A stretch of 39,609 nt of DNA from positions 1-39,609 of IMG/VR virus record IMGVR_UViG_3300025286_000042, one strand, 5' to 3'. Position 1 is the first letter of the stretch. The number at the start of each line of letters is the position of its first letter. Shown in pieces: positions 1-39,609 of the stretch. Made by a program: the position numbers and the translations under genes. This stretch comes from a virus. Below the pieces are notes generated by a model, which was given only the letters and a program-made list of their open reading frames with translations, searched no databases and was not told the DNA's origin.

Positions 1-198
1 GTTTAGGGTGTAGCCATATTCGCCCGCTACGTAGTTTATATGCTTAGATGTTGTGACACTCCACCAACCCAGGGGCGTAATTGTTCTTACCAGGTGATTG
101 ATACGAGCAACCCGGGTGCCGTACGAATAGACGTTTTCATTGTCTACACGTAGATTCTGTTTGTACTTGTCTAGATTCCATTTGTTAGGTTGTTTCAT
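1..198 (-). CDS. Small phage protein, left copy, 3' end cut by window edge
   Basis: The frame starts at ATG 198 and is open to the window edge, giving about 66 residues without a stop in view. The ribosome binding site AAAGGGAGAACG lies just upstream. The protein is a diverged copy of the complete one at 39254-39460, differing at about 7 residues, mostly conservative. Both share the C-terminal part containing ITPLGWWSVTTSKH. I do not recognise the family. It is the first gene of a leftward cluster of very small genes, transcribed from the promoter at 266-294. If the window closes directly onto position 39609, the frame would stop after one more codon. Confidence 0.6.
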   Translation of the reverse strand, partial: MKQPNKWNLDKYKQNLRVDNENVYSYGTRVARINHLVRTITPLGWWSVTTSKHINYVAGEYGYTLN

Positions 199-265
199 TT
201 TCGTTCTCCCTTTATCTGTTTTCACTATCGAATAGACACGCATCTTGTGTTCCTTATCTCTCCCG

Positions 266-294
266 ATATTACACTTATATGAAGTATTATGCAA
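266..294 (-). promoter_or_regulatory. Leftward sigma70-type promoter (left copy)
   Basis: Read leftward, TTGCAT (289-294) and TAATAT (266-271) are separated by exactly 17 bases, close to the sigma70 consensus. The site is about 70 bases upstream of the ATG at 198. The element is unchanged in the right-hand copy (39528-39556) although single-base changes lie between and around the boxes. It would drive the leftward run of small genes. Confidence 0.6.
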
Positions 295-300
295 GCTTTT

Positions 301-330
301 TCTTATATTATCTTATATTATCTTATATTA
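301..330. repeat. Three tandem 10-bp AT repeats
   Basis: TCTTATATTA occurs three times in a row, directly upstream of the leftward promoter's -35 box. Period 10 is close to one helical turn, so the tract should be bent, and it could act as an UP element or a protein-binding site. The right-hand copy at 39563-39592 keeps the array with one base changed. Confidence 0.7.
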
Positions 331-411
331 CCGACAATCTATTATATACAATAAGACACTTCCGGCGGAGCTTGGCCAATGCCGCCAATGATCCGCGGCG
401 GCGGACCGGTG

Positions 412-510
412 GCGGTGTCGCAGGTGTCGCAGGTGTCGCAGGTGTTCCAGGTGTCGCAGGTGTCGCAGGTGTTCCAGGTGTCGCCGGTGTCGCCGGTGTC
501 GCAGGTGTCG
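412..510. repeat. Eleven tandem 9-bp repeats, GC-rich
   Basis: The unit is CAGGTGTCG, repeated 11 times without gaps over 99 bases. Variants are CAGGTGTTC in units 4 and 7, CCGGTGTCG in units 9 and 10, and a first unit GCGGTGTCG. Translated rightward in one frame it gives a Gly-Val-Ala / Gly-Val-Pro collagen-like string, but I see no start signal for such a protein. The location directly upstream of the small terminase gene makes a TerS-binding (pac or cos-like) site a reasonable inference; an origin or a variable-length tract are alternatives. Confidence 0.85.
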
Positions 511-711
511 CCGGCCGTATTGCCAGGGATCCGGAGCGGGATCAATGGCAATGACGCGAGACAGCGAAACTCAAATGGAGACGCGCCAGGGGGGGGGTAT
601 GGGGACCGCACCCACCGCCGCCGTGAGGTAATGATGTATCCCACATACTTTTTGGGCGTTTTTTGCGTTTTTGGGAACTACGTCTTTATTTTATCGTAAA
701 TGTTGCGTAAC

Positions 712-24443: not shown

Positions 24444-24612
24444 AATGTCACAATAGGTAGTTTTCTGGACGATGTGATAAGGGTTCGATTCCCGTACGCG
24501 CTACTAAGCTTTTTCCCGACGAGAAACACCACTTTTCAGTCTATAAATTAGCACCCTTATTGTTAAACATTCCCCCTCGAAGCTTGTCATTGAATGTCTC
24601 AGAAATGTCACA
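24444..24612. other. attP: attP: tRNA/tmRNA 3'-end core with integrase arm sites
   Basis: 24480-24507 reads as the 3' end of a tRNA-like gene: GGGTTCGATTCCC (T arm) followed by an acceptor strand ACGCGCT and a terminal ACTA. No 5' half is present, so it is not a full gene. The upstream TTTTCTGGACG also resembles a tmRNA 3' end. Two direct copies of AAATGTCACA flank it (24444-24453 and 24603-24612), with an inverted GTGACA beside the first. These look like integrase arm-type sites. The integrase gene ends at the right site. Confidence 0.7.
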
Positions 24613-25555
24613 GTAGATTGATAATTTTTTTAAGCCTTGCAAAGTTCTGATGTATATACTCTGAAGTGACATCGGCTGACTTGTGTCCCAAGAGCGCTTT
24701 TACGTCAAACGTAGTAGCGCCTTTTTCTATCAAGTGAGTTCCGAATGAGTGACGGATGGAATGTAAATCGCCGTAACCGAGTATTTTCTGGAAGCGGTGC
24801 CTGGACCATCTCCGCTTTCCTCTTGTAGGCATAAGACTGACAAGGTTAAACTTTTTAAGTTTCCTGTGAAGCGGTATAATCACACGGCGGCTGGTTTTCT
24901 GTTGTACAATGTCTATTCTGTCGTTTTGTATATCCTTATTAGTAAGCGATCCGGCGTCACCGGTACGAAGTCCGCTATAATACAGCAGCGACCAATAGAT
25001 TCTGTCGTCTTCTCTTTCAGCTTCACGGACAGTGCGGCTTAATTCTTCAGAGGAAATAGCCGTTCTCGGCTTTATTTTCCTCTTGGCGGGGAGATCAGCC
25101 CCTTCCGCAGGGTTAGATAAGGCGTAAGAGTCTTTTATGGCGTACAGGAAGAATCTGGAAATCATACTCACTTCTTCCCGTATGGTTTTTGGCGAAACAC
25201 CCTCTTCTTTCCTTATCCTTATATAGTGACGTATCTCAGTGTAAGATATTTCTCTCACCTGATAATTTGGAAACAGTCTTGACAGATGCTTGAGTCCGCC
25301 TTTCTGCCTTAGATACCAGGATTCGTTTTTAAGCCTGCGGAGATGTTCGATATATCTGTCTATCAGATTGGGTACAAGGATTCTCTTGGCAGCAATTCCT
25401 CGATTAGCGAGGATAAGTTCCTCATCCCATTTCTGCTGAATCAGTCTTGCCAGTCGGAGTGAATCTGTTTTGGTGGATTGCCGCTTACGAAACGGCGGTG
25501 TGCCGAAAGAATAGTACCAGTGAGGAGAGTCAGATCGTTTGTAAAGACGGGACAC
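24608..25555 (-). CDS. int: Tyrosine integrase
   Basis: This 315-residue phage integrase would catalyse recombination of attP with a host tRNA or tmRNA gene. The N-terminus (YKRSDSPHWYYSFGTPPFRK) is an arm-binding-like domain, and a SAM-like core-binding domain lies around residues 65-150. The catalytic part shows SGLRTGD (first Arg), a Lys in the QQKTSRR strand region, HSIRHSFGTHL (His-x-x-Arg), LLGHKS, and SEYIH with the Tyr nucleophile. The stop lies at the right arm site of attP. The start overlaps the end of the upstream HTH gene. Confidence 0.93.
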   Translation of the reverse strand: MSRLYKRSDSPHWYYSFGTPPFRKRQSTKTDSLRLARLIQQKWDEELILANRGIAAKRILVPNLIDRYIEHLRRLKNESWYLRQKGGLKHLSRLFPNYQVREISYTEIRHYIRIRKEEGVSPKTIREEVSMISRFFLYAIKDSYALSNPAEGADLPAKRKIKPRTAISSEELSRTVREAEREDDRIYWSLLYYSGLRTGDAGSLTNKDIQNDRIDIVQQKTSRRVIIPLHRKLKKFNLVSLMPTRGKRRWSRHRFQKILGYGDLHSIRHSFGTHLIEKGATTFDVKALLGHKSADVTSEYIHQNFARLKKIINLL

Positions 25556-25860
25556 TAATCAATTGTTTTCCAGATGTGCTTACGTTCGTCGTACTGCTGC
25601 AAATGTCCTGTATGTTTATCAAACCGTCGTGCTTTTTGATTGGCCGACAGATAAAATTCGTACCGTCCCGAAGGATCGTCGGTCTTATTTCGTACAAGCT
25701 CATTGTGTAGCAGGTAAAGGTATCTAGGTGCCACGTTTCTTGCTCTCCAGTTGGTTATGGCTGACTGATGCACTTCCAGATATTCGGCCAGTTCTTTATC
25801 GAAGCGAAACCGTTTAATCTTTTTAATTGAGCCAATAATCGCTGTTACACTGTTTTTCAT
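25555..25860 (-). CDS. Small HTH regulator between repressor and integrase
   Basis: This 101-residue protein has a CI-repressor-like helix-turn-helix at residues about 20-50 (FDKELAEYLEVHQSAITNWR), without a peptidase or oligomerisation domain I can recognise. A basic, aromatic C-terminus follows. It lies in the leftward operon repressor - HTH - integrase, and overlaps both neighbours by one base. It could be a second regulator or an excision/integration control protein. Confidence 0.65.
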   Translation of the reverse strand: MKNSVTAIIGSIKKIKRFRFDKELAEYLEVHQSAITNWRARNVAPRYLYLLHNELVRNKTDDPSGRYEFYLSANQKARRFDKHTGHLQQYDERKHIWKTID

Positions 25861-26519
25861 TATAGTCCTCGCGGGTTTATCTGTACTACCGGATAGCAGA
25901 ACAGAATGTCTCTCTTGCTTACTGTTATATCTTCGTAATCATCGTTATAGGGGTGGAGTATAAAATTATCACCTTTAATATATATCTCCTTAAATACGCT
26001 CCTTCCATCTTTCAGTTTAATTAGTGCCATATCGCCGGAACGGCATTCACTACTTGGTGAGATGGTCAGAACTGCCCCCGGTTTGATCAGCGGCGTCATA
26101 GAATCGCCGTCGCTTGTCACCTGTACACAGAAAGCGTTCGGGTCCTTGGACGCCCAGCTGCTTGAAATCCATACGTCTGAAGATCCCGCTGGCCAACCTT
26201 GGTCTGTAAACTCCGAAAGTTCTCCAGCAGTAGTCCAGGCAATCAACGGAATGAGTCCTGTATCCTGAACGCTGGATTGAATAATACGGGTTTCAGGGGT
26301 TTCAAATTCACTTCCTAAAAAGTAATTGATATTAACATCCGGGAACAGTTCTGTAAGTCTCTCAAAGAACTCACCTTTTGGTACAACAATATCCTTCTCA
26401 TATCTTAATAGAGTTTGATAATGTACGCCTAAAAGCTTCGCAAAAGACCTTTGCGTAAAATCTTTTTCTCGACGGAAAAGACGAATTTTATTACCTAATG
26501 TAAACTTTTTTGTTTGCAT
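25860..26519 (-). CDS. cI: LexA/CI-type phage repressor (HTH + S24 peptidase)
   Basis: This is a 219-residue protein. The N-terminal HTH is FAKLLGVHYQTLLRYEKD. The C-terminal S24 domain has SDGDSMTPLIKPG with the Ser nucleophile, GDMALIKLKDG, and SVFKEIYIKGD with the probable Lys. An Ala-Gly in the hinge (TTAGEL) is a candidate self-cleavage site, so SOS induction is expected. ATG 26519 is chosen over an upstream TTG at 26552, because TTG overlaps the -35 box of the likely promoter. With that promoter the message would be leaderless or nearly so, as for lambda cI from PRM. Confidence 0.87.
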   Translation of the reverse strand: MQTKKFTLGNKIRLFRREKDFTQRSFAKLLGVHYQTLLRYEKDIVVPKGEFFERLTELFPDVNINYFLGSEFETPETRIIQSSVQDTGLIPLIAWTTAGELSEFTDQGWPAGSSDVWISSSWASKDPNAFCVQVTSDGDSMTPLIKPGAVLTISPSSECRSGDMALIKLKDGRSVFKEIYIKGDNFILHPYNDDYEDITVSKRDILFCYPVVQINPRGL

Positions 26520-26628
26520 TTTGTTATTAGAATCACTAACTTTGTTATGCAATGAAGGACATTATGATTACCACTTATGATAACAGAATTTATACCAAAC
26601 CACAAACAATCACAAGGAATTAATAACA
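26520..26628. promoter_or_regulatory. Divergent operator and promoter region (lysogeny switch)
   Basis: This 109-base gap separates the leftward repressor from the rightward early genes. Leftward: TTGCAT (26547-26552, read on the minus strand), 17 bases, TAATAA (26524-26529), with the start codon 4 bases further. Rightward: TTACCA (26568-26573), 17 bases, TATACC (26591-26596). Repeated TTGTTAT at 26521-26527 and 26542-26548, with inverted ATAACA copies near 26580 and 26623, are operator half-site candidates overlapping both promoters. This is the layout expected of an immunity region. Confidence 0.6.
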
Positions 26629-29642: not shown

Positions 29643-29820
29643 GGCCATCATACTGAACAGCACCGAAGAGTGCGATATACTGACTAACGACTTGGAGTGC
29701 GGATGTATGGCAGCAAAGGAAACCCAAGACAAGCACGGCGGACAGATCCGGCAGCAGCTTATAGATATAGTGAGAGAAGTGAAGGCGGAACTGGAAGGGA
29801 ACAGTTGTGAAGGTAATTAG
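29623..29820 (+). CDS. Small early protein
   Basis: This 65-residue protein starts with TTG at 29623 inside the end of rusA and ends 14 bases into the next gene. A short beta start (TIKVKAIILNSTEECDIL) is followed by a Cys-Gly-Cys and a helix (IRQQLIDIVREVKAELEG). Two of its four cysteines are close together, but no zinc site is complete. Unknown function. Confidence 0.5.
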   Translation: MKTIKVKAIILNSTEECDILTNDLECGCMAAKETQDKHGGQIRQQLIDIVREVKAELEGNSCEGN

Positions 29821-30583
29821 CCTCGGACTTGGTGTGCAATCAACAGCGATGTATTTAATGTCATCATTGGGACATATAGAACGTGCTGATTATGCGATAT
29901 TCGCCGATCCGGGAGCAGAACATCCCAAAACTTATGAGATGCTTGAATGGCTTGTGGCGTGGAGATTTTTCAATAAAGGTATTCCTATTTATGTAGAAAA
30001 AAAGAATCTATTAAGAGATACAATGCGTGGAACTAATTCATTGGGGAAAAAATTTGTTACTATCCCAGCATTCTCTGAAAGCGGTGGGATGGTACAAAGA
30101 CAATGCACAGGAGAATATAAGATATGGACGGTTAAAGATAAGGTAAGAGAATTGCAGGGATTAAAACCAAGACAAAGAATGAAGCCTTGTGAAATGTGGC
30201 TTGGAATTACGATGGATGAAGCCTCAAGAATGAAAGAATCTCGGATGTATAATATAGAATATAAATACCCCTTGATTGAATTGAGATTAAGACGTTCTGA
30301 TTGTATTAACTTTTTTAAAAAGAATGATTTTCCAATACCAATAAAATCTTCGTGTGTTTTCTGTCCATATCATTCGGATTCATTTTGGAAAGAAATCAAA
30401 AAAGAAAACGGGACAGCGTGGAAAATAGCAGTGAATGTAGATAGAAAAATCAGGGATGCAAGTAAACGTGGTTCAGCAGACAAACTGTTTTTGCATCGCA
30501 CCCATTTGCCTTTGGAAGATGTGCAATTCGCAGACCAGATAGATTTATTTGAAGAAGAATGTGAAGGATATTGTGGACTATGA
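29807..30583 (+). CDS. PP-loop (PAPS reductase / alpha hydrolase-like) protein
   Basis: This 258-residue protein starts with GTG 29807. SLGLGVQSTAM at the N-terminus is the PP-loop variant typical of phage PAPS-reductase-like proteins. FADPGAEHPKTYEMLEWL and CPYHSDSFWKEIKKENGTAW are also family features, with a Cys-x-x-Cys (CVFCPYH) and a further late Cys-x-x-Tyr-Cys end. The family activates substrates with ATP; in phages the target is often unknown, possibly DNA or tRNA thiolation. It sits next to two DNA methyltransferases, hinting at DNA modification. The stop overlaps the next start. Confidence 0.8.
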   Translation: MKVISLGLGVQSTAMYLMSSLGHIERADYAIFADPGAEHPKTYEMLEWLVAWRFFNKGIPIYVEKKNLLRDTMRGTNSLGKKFVTIPAFSESGGMVQRQCTGEYKIWTVKDKVRELQGLKPRQRMKPCEMWLGITMDEASRMKESRMYNIEYKYPLIELRLRRSDCINFFKKNDFPIPIKSSCVFCPYHSDSFWKEIKKENGTAWKIAVNVDRKIRDASKRGSADKLFLHRTHLPLEDVQFADQIDLFEEECEGYCGL

Positions 30584-32231: not shown

Positions 32232-32452
32232 TGCTTACCACTAAGACACATAACGCCAAGATAAAGAAGCTGAAAGACGAGTACGAGGATCAGCTTCAGG
32301 AACAGAAGCGAATCCTCAATCAGATGATTCAGGCAATGGATGTGGCGCTGACGAAGTATGAGAAGCGTGAATGGGGAACACACAAGACCATCTCATATCT
32401 GGCCACAGCAGCAGAGATAGCGAAGAGAGTGCTGGAAGCGAAACAGAAGTGA
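32231..32452 (+). CDS. Small coiled-coil protein
   Basis: This 73-residue protein starts at ATG 32231, overlapping the previous stop; an in-frame GTG ten codons upstream is less likely. It is almost entirely helical (KIKKLKDEYEDQLQEQKRIL), with a heptad pattern, then a basic end. It overlaps the GTG start of the following methyltransferase by 4 bases. Unknown function. Confidence 0.5.
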   Translation: MLTTKTHNAKIKKLKDEYEDQLQEQKRILNQMIQAMDVALTKYEKREWGTHKTISYLATAAEIAKRVLEAKQK

Positions 32453-33376
32453 TACTTCACGGCGACGTATTAGACAAGCTACGGGAGATTGAATCAGGTA
32501 CGGTGCAGACAGTAGTAACGTCTCCGCCGTACTGGTGAATGGGGATTAAGAGACTATGGAATTGACTCTCAACTCGGACTTGAAAAAACACCCGAAGAAT
32601 ATGTGGAAAATATGGTAAAGGTATTCAGAGAAGTGAAACGAGTATTGAAAGATGATGGAACTTGCTGGCTGAATTTGGGGGATAGTTACAATGGAAGCGG
32701 GAAGGCTGGTAATAAAAACAATGAGTATTTTAATAAGCACACAGAATTTGGCAAACCAGCAAAAAACAAAGACAAAATTGGCGTGCCTACAAATATAAAA
32801 AATCTCAAACCTAAAAACCTCGTAGGAATCCCTTGGCGTGTAGCATTTGCATTACAGGCTGACGGATGGTATTTACGCCAAGATATTATTTGGCACAAAC
32901 CCAATCCAATGCCTGAATCTGCACAGGATAGGTGTACAAAATCCCACGAAATCATATTTTTATTGACGAAGTCAGCAAAGTATTATTTTGATAATGATGC
33001 GATAAAAGAAGATAGCGTGTATCCTGACGACGATAGAAAATCAAGAACTAAAGATTATCAAAAATATGCTGGAAATGGACATAATACAGTAGCATTTGGT
33101 TCTGCAACTTATCCCAAACGCAACAAACGCTCCGTATGGACAATAAACACACAACCCTACAAGGAAGCACATTTCGCAGTTTTTCCTGAGAAACTGCCAG
33201 AACTGTGTATTAAGGCGGGGACGAAAAAAGGTGATACTGTTTTAGATCCGTTTTTCGGTAGTGGCACAACCGGGTATGTAGCACAGAGACTTGGACGTAA
33301 ATGGATAGGAATAGAGTTAAATGAAGAATACATCAAGATCGCAGAAAAGCGGTTTGCACAACGGGAGATGTTCTAA
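32449..33376 (+). pseudogene. N4/N6 DNA methyltransferase, frame broken after SPPYW
   Basis: The gene starts with GTG 32449: VILHGDVLDKLREIE and VVTSPPYW (motif IV), then TGA at 32536. The remainder (GLRDYGIDSQLGLEKTPEEY, WLNLGDSY, FALQADGWYLRQDIIWHKPN, VLDPFFGSGTTGYVA motif I, KWIGIELNEEYI) follows in the next frame. One G added to the GG at 32534-32535 would restore SPPYWGEWGLRDYG. All family motifs are otherwise present, so this is either a sequence error, a recent mutation or a programmed shift. The enzyme would methylate adenine N6 or cytosine N4. Confidence 0.8.
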
Positions 33377-33755: not shown

Positions 33756-34694
33756 ATGAATAAATCAAACCTAAAACCAATAGTAAGAGGAGCATACGAC
33801 TTGCAGACATTACGAATCCAAATGGGTGGTAGGATAGTTGCAAATTTCAGGGCGAAGTTAGGGATTTTACCATCAACAAAGACCGATGAAGCGGAAGTTG
33901 ATGCCAAGAAAATCCTTAAATGGCTGAAAGAGGAGTATAAACTCGTAACAGATGGAATGGCGACATTCCCACGAACCTTCAAGAAAAACGGGGAAAGTCT
34001 TATCTCAAATATGGCTGAATTGGTGCTTGTAGATCAATACTTCCGATTTGAGAGAGAGGAAACAAAATCGTTCAATCAGCTAAAGAAGGTGCTGAAAGAA
34101 TATCCCATTTACACTCAATTCTTGGAGGGGGTTTATGGCATAGGGCATACGATGGCGGGTGTGATAATCAGCGAAATTGACATCCACAAAGCTAAGTATG
34201 CCTCCTCAATCTGGGCGTATGCAGGACTGGACGTAGTGAACGGCAAAGGGAGGAGTCGAAAAAAAGAGCATCTTGTAGAAGTTGAGTACACAGACAGAGA
34301 CGGAAACAAACAAATGAAAAAGGGAATAACATTCAATCCGTTCCTGAAAACAAAATTAATCGGTGTGCTGGGTAGCTCATTCGTCAAACAGTCAGCAGAG
34401 AAATGTCCATATAGGTTGATTTACGATAACTACAAAAACCGACTTCGCAATAACCCGGATCATAAAGACAAATCAAAGGGACATACTCATAATATGGCGG
34501 TCAGGTATATGGTTAAGATGTTCCTTATTGATCTGTATAAAGTATGGCGGGAAATAGAAGGGTTGGAAGTTTATCCGCCTTACAGCGAAGCAAAACTTGG
34601 AATGAAGCATCAATACCGTGAAGCCATAGTGCCAAAGACAACCAAATACACAAAACGAATCAGTAAAAAAGAGACAACCATCTTGCGTAAGTGA
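33756..34694 (+). CDS. Tas-like protein (IS110 C-terminal / Nop-related), nuclease-less
   Basis: This 312-residue protein has VYGIGHTMAGVIISEID at residues 126-142, then YASSIWAYAGLDVVNGKG. That is the helix-hairpin pattern of the IS110-type transposase C-terminal domain, related to the Nop domain of box C/D RNPs. A basic loop, THNMAVRYMVKMFLIDLYKV and a terminal VYPPYSEAKLGMKH follow. The first 110 residues are helical. I see no DEDD/RuvC acidic set and no HNH, so it should bind RNA and DNA without cutting (TasA-like). Residues 294-312 are encoded by the tandem array. A 36-nt dual-spacer array directly downstream supports TIGR-Tas over a transposon. Confidence 0.8.
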   Translation: MNKSNLKPIVRGAYDLQTLRIQMGGRIVANFRAKLGILPSTKTDEAEVDAKKILKWLKEEYKLVTDGMATFPRTFKKNGESLISNMAELVLVDQYFRFEREETKSFNQLKKVLKEYPIYTQFLEGVYGIGHTMAGVIISEIDIHKAKYASSIWAYAGLDVVNGKGRSRKKEHLVEVEYTDRDGNKQMKKGITFNPFLKTKLIGVLGSSFVKQSAEKCPYRLIYDNYKNRLRNNPDHKDKSKGHTHNMAVRYMVKMFLIDLYKVWREIEGLEVYPPYSEAKLGMKHQYREAIVPKTTKYTKRISKKETTILRK

Positions 34695-34851
34695 GTCAAA
34701 ATACCTAAGACAACCAAGATGAACGAACGAATCAGTAAAAAAGAGACAACCACTCTCTCGAAGTGAGTCATTCTTGACTAGACAACCAGACACTGTAAAC
34801 GAGTCAAATTATACTAGCCAACCATAGATGAGAAACGAGCCAAACAATAAA
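34636..34851 (+). repeat. TIGR-like dual-spacer array, six 36-nt units
   Basis: Units start at 34636, 34672, 34708, 34744, 34780 and 34816, exactly 36 bases apart. Each has an edge repeat AGACAACCA (AGCCAACCA in unit 6), a 9-nt variable segment, a loop repeat (AACGAATCA, AGTGAGTCA, AACGAGTCA or AACGAGCCA) and a second 9-nt segment. First segments: AATACACAA, TCTTGCGTA, AGATGAACG, CTCTCTCGA, GACACTGTA, TAGATGAGA. Second segments: GTAAAAAAG, AAATACCTA, GTAAAAAAG, TTCTTGACT, AATTATACT, AACAATAAA. Repeat plus spacer twice in 36 nt is the architecture described for tigRNAs. Unit 1 and most of unit 2 lie inside the Tas-like gene. Confidence 0.88.
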
Positions 34852-34856
34852 AGAAG

Positions 34857-36308
34857 ATGACTGAAGAACCGTTACAACCGCTGTACTCAATAGAAGCTGA
34901 AGAAGCGCTGATTGCTGCTGTCTTAACAGACGCAGAGATACTGGACCATACCAGCTACCTGAATAAAGACGACTTCTACGACACCAAAACGCAATACATC
35001 TGGCGGAGTATAAAGTATCTCTTTAACAACCGTAAAAATATAGATCCTGTCAGTATTATAGAAGCGCTCAAGAAGAATAAGTCGCTTGAGAAGTCTGGCG
35101 GAAGTTACTATATAACAGGGCTTTTTGGCACCATTCCCACTGCGGCAAACGCTGGTGAACACGCCAAGATAATCCGAGAGTACGCGATAAAAAGACGACT
35201 CCAGGAAGTGACCTGCAAATTCTATCAGTCCGGAATACCGGACCTGAACGGCGACCTGACCAAATTCCAGCAGGAGATAGACGAAATCACTTCGTCCATT
35301 CCGCAAACGACTACTATTCCAGGTCTCACATTGCACAAATACAGCGACTATATCGACGACGCTACACCGGAACCGGACTTTATCGTCACCTGCGGCATAC
35401 TCCCGGAAAGAGGCGTACTCATTATCGGCGGACAACCTAAGTCCGGCAAGTCAATACTGTCAATCAATCTGGGGTACTGCCTGGCAACAGCATCCAACTG
35501 GCTTGGATTTACCATCCCGCAAAAGAGACGAACGCTTATACTCCAAGCGGAAAACTCGTACTATAACGTAAGACGGCGGATAAAAACGCTGCACAACGCC
35601 TCAGAACCGCCGTATAATCTCCAAATCCCGAAAGATGACAACCTGATAATGTCGGACCCTGTTTCGATTAAAATAAACGAATTTAACGGCTATACAGCAG
35701 TAAGACAGCTGATCAAACAGTACAAACCGGAAGTATTGATACTGGACCCGCTGATTCACTTCCACTCAGCAAACGAGAATGACAACGCCGAAATGGGAAT
35801 GGTTATGGAGCAGATCCGCTCACTGGCCAACAATCACAATCTGGCGATTGTATTGGTACACCACACCAAGAAACCGGGAATGGACTCATCACCAGGCGGA
35901 ATGGCACTGAGAGGAGCTTCCGCCGTCTTCGGCGCCGTGGACAGCTCACTTGTGTTGTCCAGAAATTCCGATACAGATACTGGCGATACAGACTACACCC
36001 TCAATTTCGACATCCGCAACGGCGAAAACCCGGAGCAGTACAACCTCGATTTTGACGATTCAATACTGTTCTTTATGAAAAAAGAAAACGATTCAGTCAA
36101 TATCGGACAGTTTATCCAGGATACAACAATTAAATGCGGAGAAGACGGCATCAGCCGTAAACTGCTGATCGAATTAGCGGAAGATGAGGGATTCGCAAGC
36201 AACACAACACGCAGAAAACTGACAGCACTGATCAATAAAAATACGGTTAAAACGGATGGAAAAAAACGGGATCCAACAATATATTATCATACCTTTGCAA
36301 GTGACTGA
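34857..36308 (+). CDS. Replicative helicase (DnaB N-domain + RepA-like ATPase)
   Basis: This 483-residue protein starts with a DnaB N-terminal domain at residues about 8-120 (LYSIEAEEALIAAVLTDAEI, GSYYITGLF, IIREYAIKRRL). The RecA-fold ATPase resembles plasmid RepA helicases: Walker A GQPKSGKS near residue 194, Walker B EVLILDPLIHFHS, LVHHTKKPG, and MALRGASAVFGAVD. The last 70 residues look like a winged helix (SRKLLIELAEDEGFASNTTR). It would unwind DNA at the phage origin, possibly the repeats just downstream. It starts 5 bases after the tandem array, with AAAGAAG as the ribosome binding site. Confidence 0.85.
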   Translation: MTEEPLQPLYSIEAEEALIAAVLTDAEILDHTSYLNKDDFYDTKTQYIWRSIKYLFNNRKNIDPVSIIEALKKNKSLEKSGGSYYITGLFGTIPTAANAGEHAKIIREYAIKRRLQEVTCKFYQSGIPDLNGDLTKFQQEIDEITSSIPQTTTIPGLTLHKYSDYIDDATPEPDFIVTCGILPERGVLIIGGQPKSGKSILSINLGYCLATASNWLGFTIPQKRRTLILQAENSYYNVRRRIKTLHNASEPPYNLQIPKDDNLIMSDPVSIKINEFNGYTAVRQLIKQYKPEVLILDPLIHFHSANENDNAEMGMVMEQIRSLANNHNLAIVLVHHTKKPGMDSSPGGMALRGASAVFGAVDSSLVLSRNSDTDTGDTDYTLNFDIRNGENPEQYNLDFDDSILFFMKKENDSVNIGQFIQDTTIKCGEDGISRKLLIELAEDEGFASNTTRRKLTALINKNTVKTDGKKRDPTIYYHTFASD

Positions 36309-36314
36309 AATCCC

Positions 36315-36482
36315 TTGTTTCCATTCTTATTTCCACGGAAACAAGGTTGGAAATAAGGAATTAAAAACCGTTGTTTCCACGCTTGTTTCCAAGGAAACAG
36401 TGATGGAAATAAGGAATTGAAAACCGTTGTTTCCACTTTCTATCCCCTAAAGGGATAGGGGGAACGTTGGAAATAAGGAATT
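36315..36482. repeat. Three ~56-bp repeats, probable replication origin
   Basis: TTGTTTCCA starts at 36315, 36371 and 36427, exactly 56 bases apart. Each copy ends with TGGAAATAAGGAATT and, in the first two, AAAACCG. The middles differ: copy 1 holds CTTATTTCCACGGAAACAAG, copy 2 TTGTTTCCAAGGAAACAG, and copy 3 the hairpin CTATCCC-CTAAA-GGGATAG (36440-36458). TTTCC and GGAAA boxes recur in both orientations. Placement just after the helicase gene and before convergent genes fits an iteron-type origin. Alternatives are a replication-terminator set or an RNA-coding array. Confidence 0.7.
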
Positions 36483-39253: not shown

Positions 39254-39460
39254 TTAGGTTTTGTTTAGGGTGTAGCCATATTCGCCCGCCACATAGTTTA
39301 TATGTTTGGATGTCGTGACACTCCACCACCCTAGGGGCGTAATTGTTTTGTCCAGGTGGTTTATATGCGCAACCCGGGTGTCGTATGAATAGACGCTTTC
39401 GTTGTCTACACGTAGATTCTGTTTGTACTTGTCTAGATTCCATTTGCTATGTTGTTTCAT
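39254..39460 (-). CDS. Small phage protein, right copy (complete)
   Basis: This 68-residue protein starts at ATG 39460, with AAAGGGAGAACG directly upstream. It contains VYSYDTRVAHINHLDKTITP, then LGWWSVTTSKHINYVAGEYG. It is a diverged copy of the truncated protein at 1-198. The pairs differ mostly by transitions and conservative residues, so both copies appear to be under selection for protein sequence. It is the first gene of the leftward cluster. Function unknown. Confidence 0.65.
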   Translation of the reverse strand: MKQHSKWNLDKYKQNLRVDNESVYSYDTRVAHINHLDKTITPLGWWSVTTSKHINYVAGEYGYTLNKT

Positions 39461-39609
39461 TTTCGTTCTCCCTTTATCTGTTTTCACTATCGAATAGACA
39501 CGCATCTTGTGTTCCTTATCTCTCCCGATATTACACTTATGTTAAGTATTATGCAAGCTTTTTATTATATTATCTTATATTATCTTATATTACCGACAAT
39601 CTATTATAT
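39263..39609. repeat. 347-bp end repeat, right copy
   Basis: This is the partner of 1-347, aligned without gaps at about 93% identity. It holds the 5' 66 codons and upstream region of the 68-residue protein, its promoter, and the phased AT repeats. The true sequence beyond 39609 is not visible; by analogy with 348 onward the packaging region would follow. Confidence 0.9.
39528..39556 (-). promoter_or_regulatory. Leftward sigma70-type promoter (right copy)
   Basis: Read leftward: TTGCAT (39551-39556), 17 bases, TAATAT (39528-39533), about 67 bases upstream of the ATG at 39460. It is identical in its boxes to the left copy at 266-294. AT-rich phased repeats lie directly upstream. It would transcribe the whole leftward cluster down to the terminator near 36600. 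Confidence 0.65.

What the first reader, a model, noticed from the sequence alone, without database searches (positions are those of the whole stretch)
33756..34851. TIGR-Tas-like locus: Nop/IS110-like protein plus exact 36-nt dual-spacer array
Seen: six units of exactly 36 nt directly after a protein with the IS110 C-terminal/Nop-like pattern. Each unit is four 9-nt parts: repeat AGACAACCA, variable, a second repeat ending in a TCA or CCA, variable. Known: TIGR arrays encode about 36-nt guide RNAs with two short spacers, bound by Tas proteins that carry a Nop-like domain and are relatives of IS110 proteins. Inferred: this phage carries a compact nuclease-less (TasA-like) member inside its early operon. 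It may silence or mark rival DNA, or regulate genes. The array is too short and too regular to be CRISPR.
Basis: partly seen in the sequence, partly recalled or inferred. Interest (0 to 1): 0.97.

Follow-up and report, generated by a model that had tools for sequence, protein, structure and literature searches.

The report
Phage-borne TIGR-TasA RNA-guided system
This temperate phage carries a small nuclease-free member of the recently described TIGR-Tas RNA-guided DNA-binding systems, and close relatives of such phages swap out most of their guide arrays while the surrounding DNA stays about 95% the same, which gives a natural series for asking where such guides come from and what they hit.

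Summary
ORF 33756-34694 belongs to the TIGR-Tas family: NCBIfam NF052498 scores 126.5 bits against a cut-off of 100, and the nearest solved structures by sequence and fold are TasR and TasH, with IS110 recombinases behind. No nuclease domain was found, so it is TasA-type. A dual-repeat array with an exact 36-nt period follows it. About 50 IMG/VR loci encode relatives, and nearly all carry a 36-nt array beside the gene.

AACGARTCA is the edge repeat and AGACAACCA the A-rich loop repeat, so the array is 34618-34842 and the spacer pairs differ from those implied. Truncated edges at array ends and spacer linkage across relatives support this.

In relatives with about 95% identical flanks, interior units are largely replaced and reordered. 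No target was found: own genome, about 2.3 Mb of mostly TasA-phage DNA, and IMG/VR scans of all six guides gave chance-level matches only.

Most likely mechanism (inferred from TasR/TasH): a TasA dimer loaded with 36-nt tigRNAs binds and bends 18-bp DNA sites without cutting. Biological purpose unproven. New member of a known kind.

The parts
33756..34694 (+). tasA-type gene: Nop-domain protein without nuclease domain, 312 aa; conserved part about residues 1-285
   Evidence: NF052498 126.5 bits, cut-off 100; 9mty TasR E 8.8e-19 and TasH E 9.7e-13 by sequence; fold matches; no RuvC, DEDD or HNH hit in Pfam
34599..34694 (+). end of tasA coding residues 282-312, mostly overlapping the array: disordered, lysine-rich tail not present in most relatives
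   Evidence: pLDDT below 50 for residues 282-312; relatives L003-L011 stop at about residue 287
34618..34842 (+). TIGR array: 7 edge repeats, 6 loop repeats, 12 spacers of 9 nt, period exactly 36 nt
34618..34626 (+). first edge repeat, 5'-truncated (GTGAAGCCA)
   Evidence: same position as the degenerate first edge in other arrays
34834..34842 (+). closing edge repeat (AACGAGCCA)
34622..34657 (+). predicted tigRNA 1: spacer A TAGTGCCAA, loop AGACAACCA, spacer B AATACACAA
   Evidence: register; cut inside the edge repeat by analogy with PMC12045711; exact cut position inferred
34658..34693 (+). predicted tigRNA 2: spacer A GTAAAAAAG, spacer B TCTTGCGTA
   Evidence: as above
34694..34729 (+). 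predicted tigRNA 3: spacer A AAATACCTA, spacer B AGATGAACG (AGATTATCG in sister contig L013)
   Evidence: as above; for the difference
34730..34765 (+). predicted tigRNA 4: spacer A GTAAAAAAG (same as unit 2), spacer B CTCTCTCGA
   Evidence: as above
34766..34801 (+). predicted tigRNA 5: spacer A TTCTTGACT, spacer B GACACTGTA
   Evidence: as above
34802..34837 (+). predicted tigRNA 6: spacer A AATTATACT, loop AGCCAACCA, spacer B TAGATGAGA
   Evidence: as above
34857..36308 (+). neighbouring gene, DnaB-like replicative helicase; starts 14 nt after the array with no terminator-like site between, so the array probably lies inside a polycistronic message
   Evidence: DnaB and AAA_25; terminator scan

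Best explanation
This is a TIGR-TasA locus in the early region of a temperate phage. tasA and its array are probably transcribed together with the downstream helicase gene (inferred). A host nuclease and TasA cut the precursor inside each edge repeat, releasing six 36-nt tigRNAs of the form edge half, spacer A, A-rich loop, spacer B, edge half (inferred from the experiments in PMC12045711). A TasA dimer binds the boxes of the edge and loop repeats and presents the two 9-nt spacers, which pair with opposite strands of one 18-bp site (spacer A followed by the reverse complement of spacer B, gap 0-2). Having no nuclease, it opens and bends the site without cutting. The most likely purpose is to block transcription or replication at chosen sites of competing mobile elements, or less likely of the host or the phage itself. 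Membership and anatomy are shown here; processing, DNA binding and purpose are inferred.
For: Curated TIGR-Tas model above cut-off for the window protein and matched by all 31 aligned relatives. Sequence matches to TasR 9mty and TasH. Confident fold, pLDDT 82.7, with TasH and TasR as the 11 best PDB matches, then IS621 and ISCro4. No nuclease domain in Pfam. Dual-repeat array with 9-nt spacers and exact 36-nt period. Nearly every relative has a 36-nt array next to the gene. Arrays start with 5'-degenerate and often end with 3'-degenerate edge repeats, and the loop repeat is A-rich, both as described in PMC12045711. The last bases of edge and loop repeats change together in L049 (both CT) and L046 (both TA), as expected if both bind one symmetric dimer. 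Array content changes much faster than the flanks, which fits selection on varying targets.
Against: No target was found in the own genome, in about 2.3 Mb of mostly TasA-phage DNA, or in IMG/VR beyond chance, so guide function is unproven for this locus. No RNA data exist here. The target geometry was derived from the reported 8-nt 3' overhang of TasR and may differ for TasA.
Confidence: 0.85

Rival explanations
1. The array is a TIGR array but serves the phage itself: TasA is an RNA-guided regulator or DNA-bending aid acting on the phage genome or on its integration and replication.
For: The phage is temperate (integrase 24608-25555, S24-type repressor 25860-26552) and the array sits against the replicative helicase gene. 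PMC12045711 proposes integrase aid as one role for TasA.
Against: No guide matches the phage genome better than 15 of 18 positions. The guide content turns over quickly between near-identical phages, which does not fit fixed self sites. Genes next to tasA are not conserved.
Confidence: 0.1
2. The guides act on host genes, altering host defence or metabolism during infection.
For: Host genomes were not searched in an informative way because the host is unknown, so host targets are not excluded. Early-region location suits host takeover.
Against: Rapid unit replacement between phages with about 95% identical flanks is more expected for fast-changing rivals than for conserved host genes.
Confidence: 0.2
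3. A degenerate IS110-family element: transposase remnant plus a repeated bridge-RNA-like region.
For: Weak PF02371 hit, weak transpos_IS110 hit, PHROG 4285 labelled transposase, and distant fold match to IS621.
Against: No DEDD domain. Scores for TIGR-Tas far exceed those for IS110 (126.5 against 15.6 bits). IS110 elements do not carry 36-nt dual-repeat arrays, and about 50 viral loci keep gene and array together.
Confidence: 0.02
4. A neutral minisatellite or a short CRISPR-like array.
For: It is a short tandem repeat with variable parts.
Against: Two alternating repeats with nine-base variable parts, and the layout is conserved across divergent phages while spacer sequence is not. There is no cas gene among the annotated window genes, and repeats of 9 nt are too short for CRISPR.
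Confidence: 0.01

Closest known systems
TIGR-TasA (solo Nop-domain TIGR-Tas, e.g. Flavonifractor plautii FpTIGR; PMC12045711)
   Same: Solo Nop-domain protein of about 290-310 aa, adjacent dual-repeat array, 9-nt spacers, 36-nt unit, location in phages.
   Different: Here the tasA reading frame continues through two array units; the array appears to sit inside an operon directly before a helicase gene, without the rho-independent terminator described as typical; the edge repeat is AACGARTCA or AGTGAGTCA and the loop AGACAACCA rather than the UG...CCA boxes described for TasR.
TIGR-TasR (PDB 9mty) and TasH of Salicola phage CGphi29 (PDB 21kl, 9w03 and others)
   Same: Homologous Nop and C-terminal region, 36-nt tandem-spacer logic.
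   Different: They carry a RuvC or HNH nuclease at the N-terminus; the window protein has only helices there and no nuclease hit.
IS110 family recombinases (IS621, ISCro4) with bridge RNA
   Same: Distant fold and sequence similarity of the C-terminal region.
   Different: No DEDD catalytic domain, no bridge RNA, an array instead.
Nop5/Prp31 and box C/D snoRNP
   Same: Nop-type fold; Prp31 appears only as a weak fold match.
   Different: The match is far above any significance limit (E 3.1); no fibrillarin partner or K-turn; likeness to Nop5 rests mainly on the published TasR comparison.

Membership tests
TIGR-Tas | Tas protein of the TIGR Nop-domain family | tested here: met
   NF052498 E 1.3e-36, 126.5 bits against cut-off 100; TasR and TasH best matches by sequence and fold
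TIGR-Tas | Adjacent array of two alternating 8-12-nt repeats interspaced by 9-nt spacers | tested here: met
   9-nt edge and loop repeats, 9-nt spacers, array 34618-34842
[quoted passage not shown]
   First edge of the window is degenerate at its 5' side; its closing edge is nearly full (AACGAGCCA). Most relatives show a degenerate first edge and many a degenerate closing edge
TIGR-Tas | Predicted rho-independent terminator after the array (typical, not strict) | tested here: not met
   No terminator-like site between the array and the helicase gene; the array appears to be inside an operon. Described as typical only, so not treated as decisive
TIGR-Tas | Box motifs agree between edge and loop repeats; loop A-rich | tested here: met
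   Loop positions 3-6 are 69% A against 25% in edges; box C ends change together in L049 and L046
TIGR-Tas | 36-nt tigRNAs bound by Tas | not testable with these tools
   Needs small-RNA sequencing after pull-down
TIGR-Tas | Tandem-spacer recognition of opposite DNA strands | tested here: inconclusive
   No target above chance found in silico
TasA subtype | No RuvC or HNH nuclease domain | tested here: met
   No such domain in Pfam; N-terminal region is helices only in the model
IS110 transposase | DEDD catalytic domain and IS110 model score above cut-off | tested here: not met
   transpos_IS110 15.6 bits against cut-off 140; no DEDD domain hit
CRISPR-Cas | Repeats of about 25-36 nt, long spacers, cas genes | tested here: not met
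   9-nt repeats and spacers; no Cas domain among the window genes scanned; one weak PHROG label 'CRISPR/Cas system associated' falls on an exonuclease

The most novel reading that the evidence does not exclude
TIGR arrays in these phages evolve by exchange of whole loop-centred units, with the array ends kept and the interior replaced and reordered while flanking DNA stays about 95% identical, so TIGR-TasA would be a fast-adapting guide store exchanged between co-circulating phages without any acquisition machinery.
Probability: 0.4. Interest if true: 0.7.

Novelty: new member of a known kind. Interest (0 to 1): 0.5.

Why it matters
What nuclease-less TasA does, what TIGR guides hit, and how the arrays gain and lose units are stated as open questions in the founding paper (PMC12045711). 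This near-complete temperate phage, its sister contigs, and the families L003-L011 and L019-L022 give closely related phages with different arrays, which is the material needed to study array turnover. The corrected register also gives the right spacer pairs for anyone who wants to test targets.

Tried and rejected
Target search with the corrected pairs in TasA-phage flanks and whole contigs: as many near-exact hits with swapped pairs as with true pairs, apart from hits fetched by the pattern scans themselves. Six IMG/VR pattern scans, one per window guide, gap 0-2: 22 stretches, about 13 independent, spread 6, 4 and 3 over gaps 0, 1 and 2, and no contig group hit exactly by two guides. One hit (unit 3) spans a possible start codon of a gene in L063/L064, but a single hit of this kind is expected by chance. 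Opposite spacer order gave no excess either. Search of genome contigs for relatives found none. Tally of genes next to tasA found no conserved partner and no ParB domain among the families shown. First and last repeat type as called by the array-finding script was uninformative because degenerate end repeats score low; reading the ends directly settled it. The two changed bases in spacer B of unit 3 between the window and L013 were considered as evidence of fast spacer evolution, but other differences between the two contigs are also clustered, so no weight is put on them.

Full report
Observation. Six AGACAACCA-type repeats stand exactly 36 nt apart and alternate with a second 9-nt repeat. 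Identity at lag 36 is 0.545, against a maximum of 0.44 in 5000 Markov simulations of the same stretch.

The protein. Pfam gives only a sub-threshold IS110 C-terminal hit. NCBIfam's TIGR-Tas model scores 126.5 bits against a cut-off of 100, and all 31 aligned relatives match it. In the PDB by sequence the only credible matches are 9mty (named TasR), E 8.8e-19, and TasH, E 9.7e-13 (profile search). An AlphaFold2 model from a 31-sequence alignment has mean pLDDT 82.7. Foldseek returns TasH and TasR chains as the top 11 matches, then IS621 and ISCro4 recombinases, with Prp31 only as an insignificant hit. TM-scores of 0.45-0.57 show a shared fold with different domain placement. The N-terminal part is helical with no nuclease hit, so this is the TasA type. 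PHROGs label the family transposase, which is misleading.

The array and its register. Three lines of evidence put the boundary in the other repeat. First, 18 nt before the first AGACAACCA-type repeat of most arrays there is a copy of the other repeat that often keeps only its 3' half (GTGAAGCCA in the window, CATAAGCCA, GGCTTATCA and so on elsewhere), and many arrays end with a copy that keeps only its 5' half. Second, AGAAAACCA/AGACAACCA is the A-rich repeat (69% A at positions 3-6, against 25%). Third, when two units across all arrays have a similar first spacer, the partner across the A-rich repeat is also similar in 66 of 446 cases, against 28 of 592 across the other repeat (Fisher p 2.6e-8, but units are not independent). 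So AACGARTCA/AGTGAGTCA is the edge, AGACAACCA is the loop, the array is 34618-34842, and six tigRNAs are predicted at 34622-34837. The exact cut site within the edge is inferred from the truncation point.

Overlap with the gene. In most relatives tasA stops at or just before the first edge repeat; in L003 the stop codon TAA overlaps the AACGAGTCA repeat. In the window the frame stays open through two units and stops in the third edge repeat. The extra residues, 282-312, are disordered in the model. L018 and L025 also have frames that run into the array. I read this as tolerated run-on rather than a functional domain (inference).

Relatives. Viral-contig searches gave 52 loci, and nearly all have a 36-nt-period array beside the gene, upstream, downstream or both. 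No relative was found in GTDB species genomes at this sensitivity. Among isolate phages, Salicola CGphi29 (TasH) and Microcystis phage Mvi-JY20 encode distant relatives. Box C endings change together in edge and loop repeats in two divergent groups (L049, L046).

Array turnover. In L003, L004 and L008 flanks are 94-96% identical, and in L020 and L021 95%, yet interior units are mostly different, with a few units kept at the ends and some reordered. This is the most informative part of the data for the open question of how TIGR arrays change. It does not by itself show the mechanism, and these contigs are metagenome assemblies, in which repeat arrays can be misassembled.

Targets. With the geometry that gives the reported 8-nt 3' overhangs (spacer A, gap 0-2, reverse complement of spacer B; my derivation), none of the six guides matches the window genome better than 15 of 18. 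The 573 pairs against 0.76 Mb of flanks and 1.58 Mb of further DNA, mostly whole TasA-phage contigs, give no excess over swapped pairs. Six IMG/VR-wide scans give about 13 independent exact hits, spread over all gaps and over unrelated contigs. I take this as chance. The target class is therefore unknown; the host is unknown too.

Context. The phage has a P22-like portal, terminase, integrase and S24-type repressor, two DNA methyltransferases and a DnaB-like helicase. Its ends overlap imperfectly by about 347 bp, so it is probably near complete. The array ends 14 nt before the helicase start with no terminator-like site between, so processing of the array would cut a shared message (inference). 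Genes beside tasA are not conserved in relatives.

Verdict. A TIGR-TasA locus, correctly spotted from raw sequence, with the register corrected. New member of a known kind. Function by RNA-guided binding without cutting is the best explanation by homology; blocking rival elements is the most likely purpose, at roughly even odds.

Noticed in passing
window 32371-33376: An N4/N6-type DNA methyltransferase gene is split between two frames right at its catalytic motif (TSPPYW in one frame, WGLRDYG in the next); frameshift, decay or assembly error.
   Followed up: partly
window 1-347 and 39263-39609: The two ends of the contig repeat each other imperfectly over about 347 bp, suggesting a near-complete genome with terminal repeats assembled from a mixed population.
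   Followed up: partly
window 414-511: About 11 copies of a 9-nt unit (GGTGTCGCA) near the left end.
   Followed up: no
window 36308-36436: A 56-nt direct repeat, 2.3 copies, just after the helicase gene with many TTTCC/GGAAA words; possible replication origin iterons.
   Followed up: no
window 29807-30580: Protein with a weak match to SspD of the phosphorothioation-linked Ssp defence system (PADLOC E 1.9e-9), next to a C5 methyltransferase.
   Followed up: no
L032 (9013-9483, 12276-12820) and L046 (3508-4053): Additional 36-nt-period segments away from tasA in larger phage contigs; they may be further TIGR arrays.
   Followed up: no
L054, L055, L056, L059: TasA relatives of about 400 aa, some 110 aa longer than the window protein, with no extra Pfam domain recognised.
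   Followed up: partly
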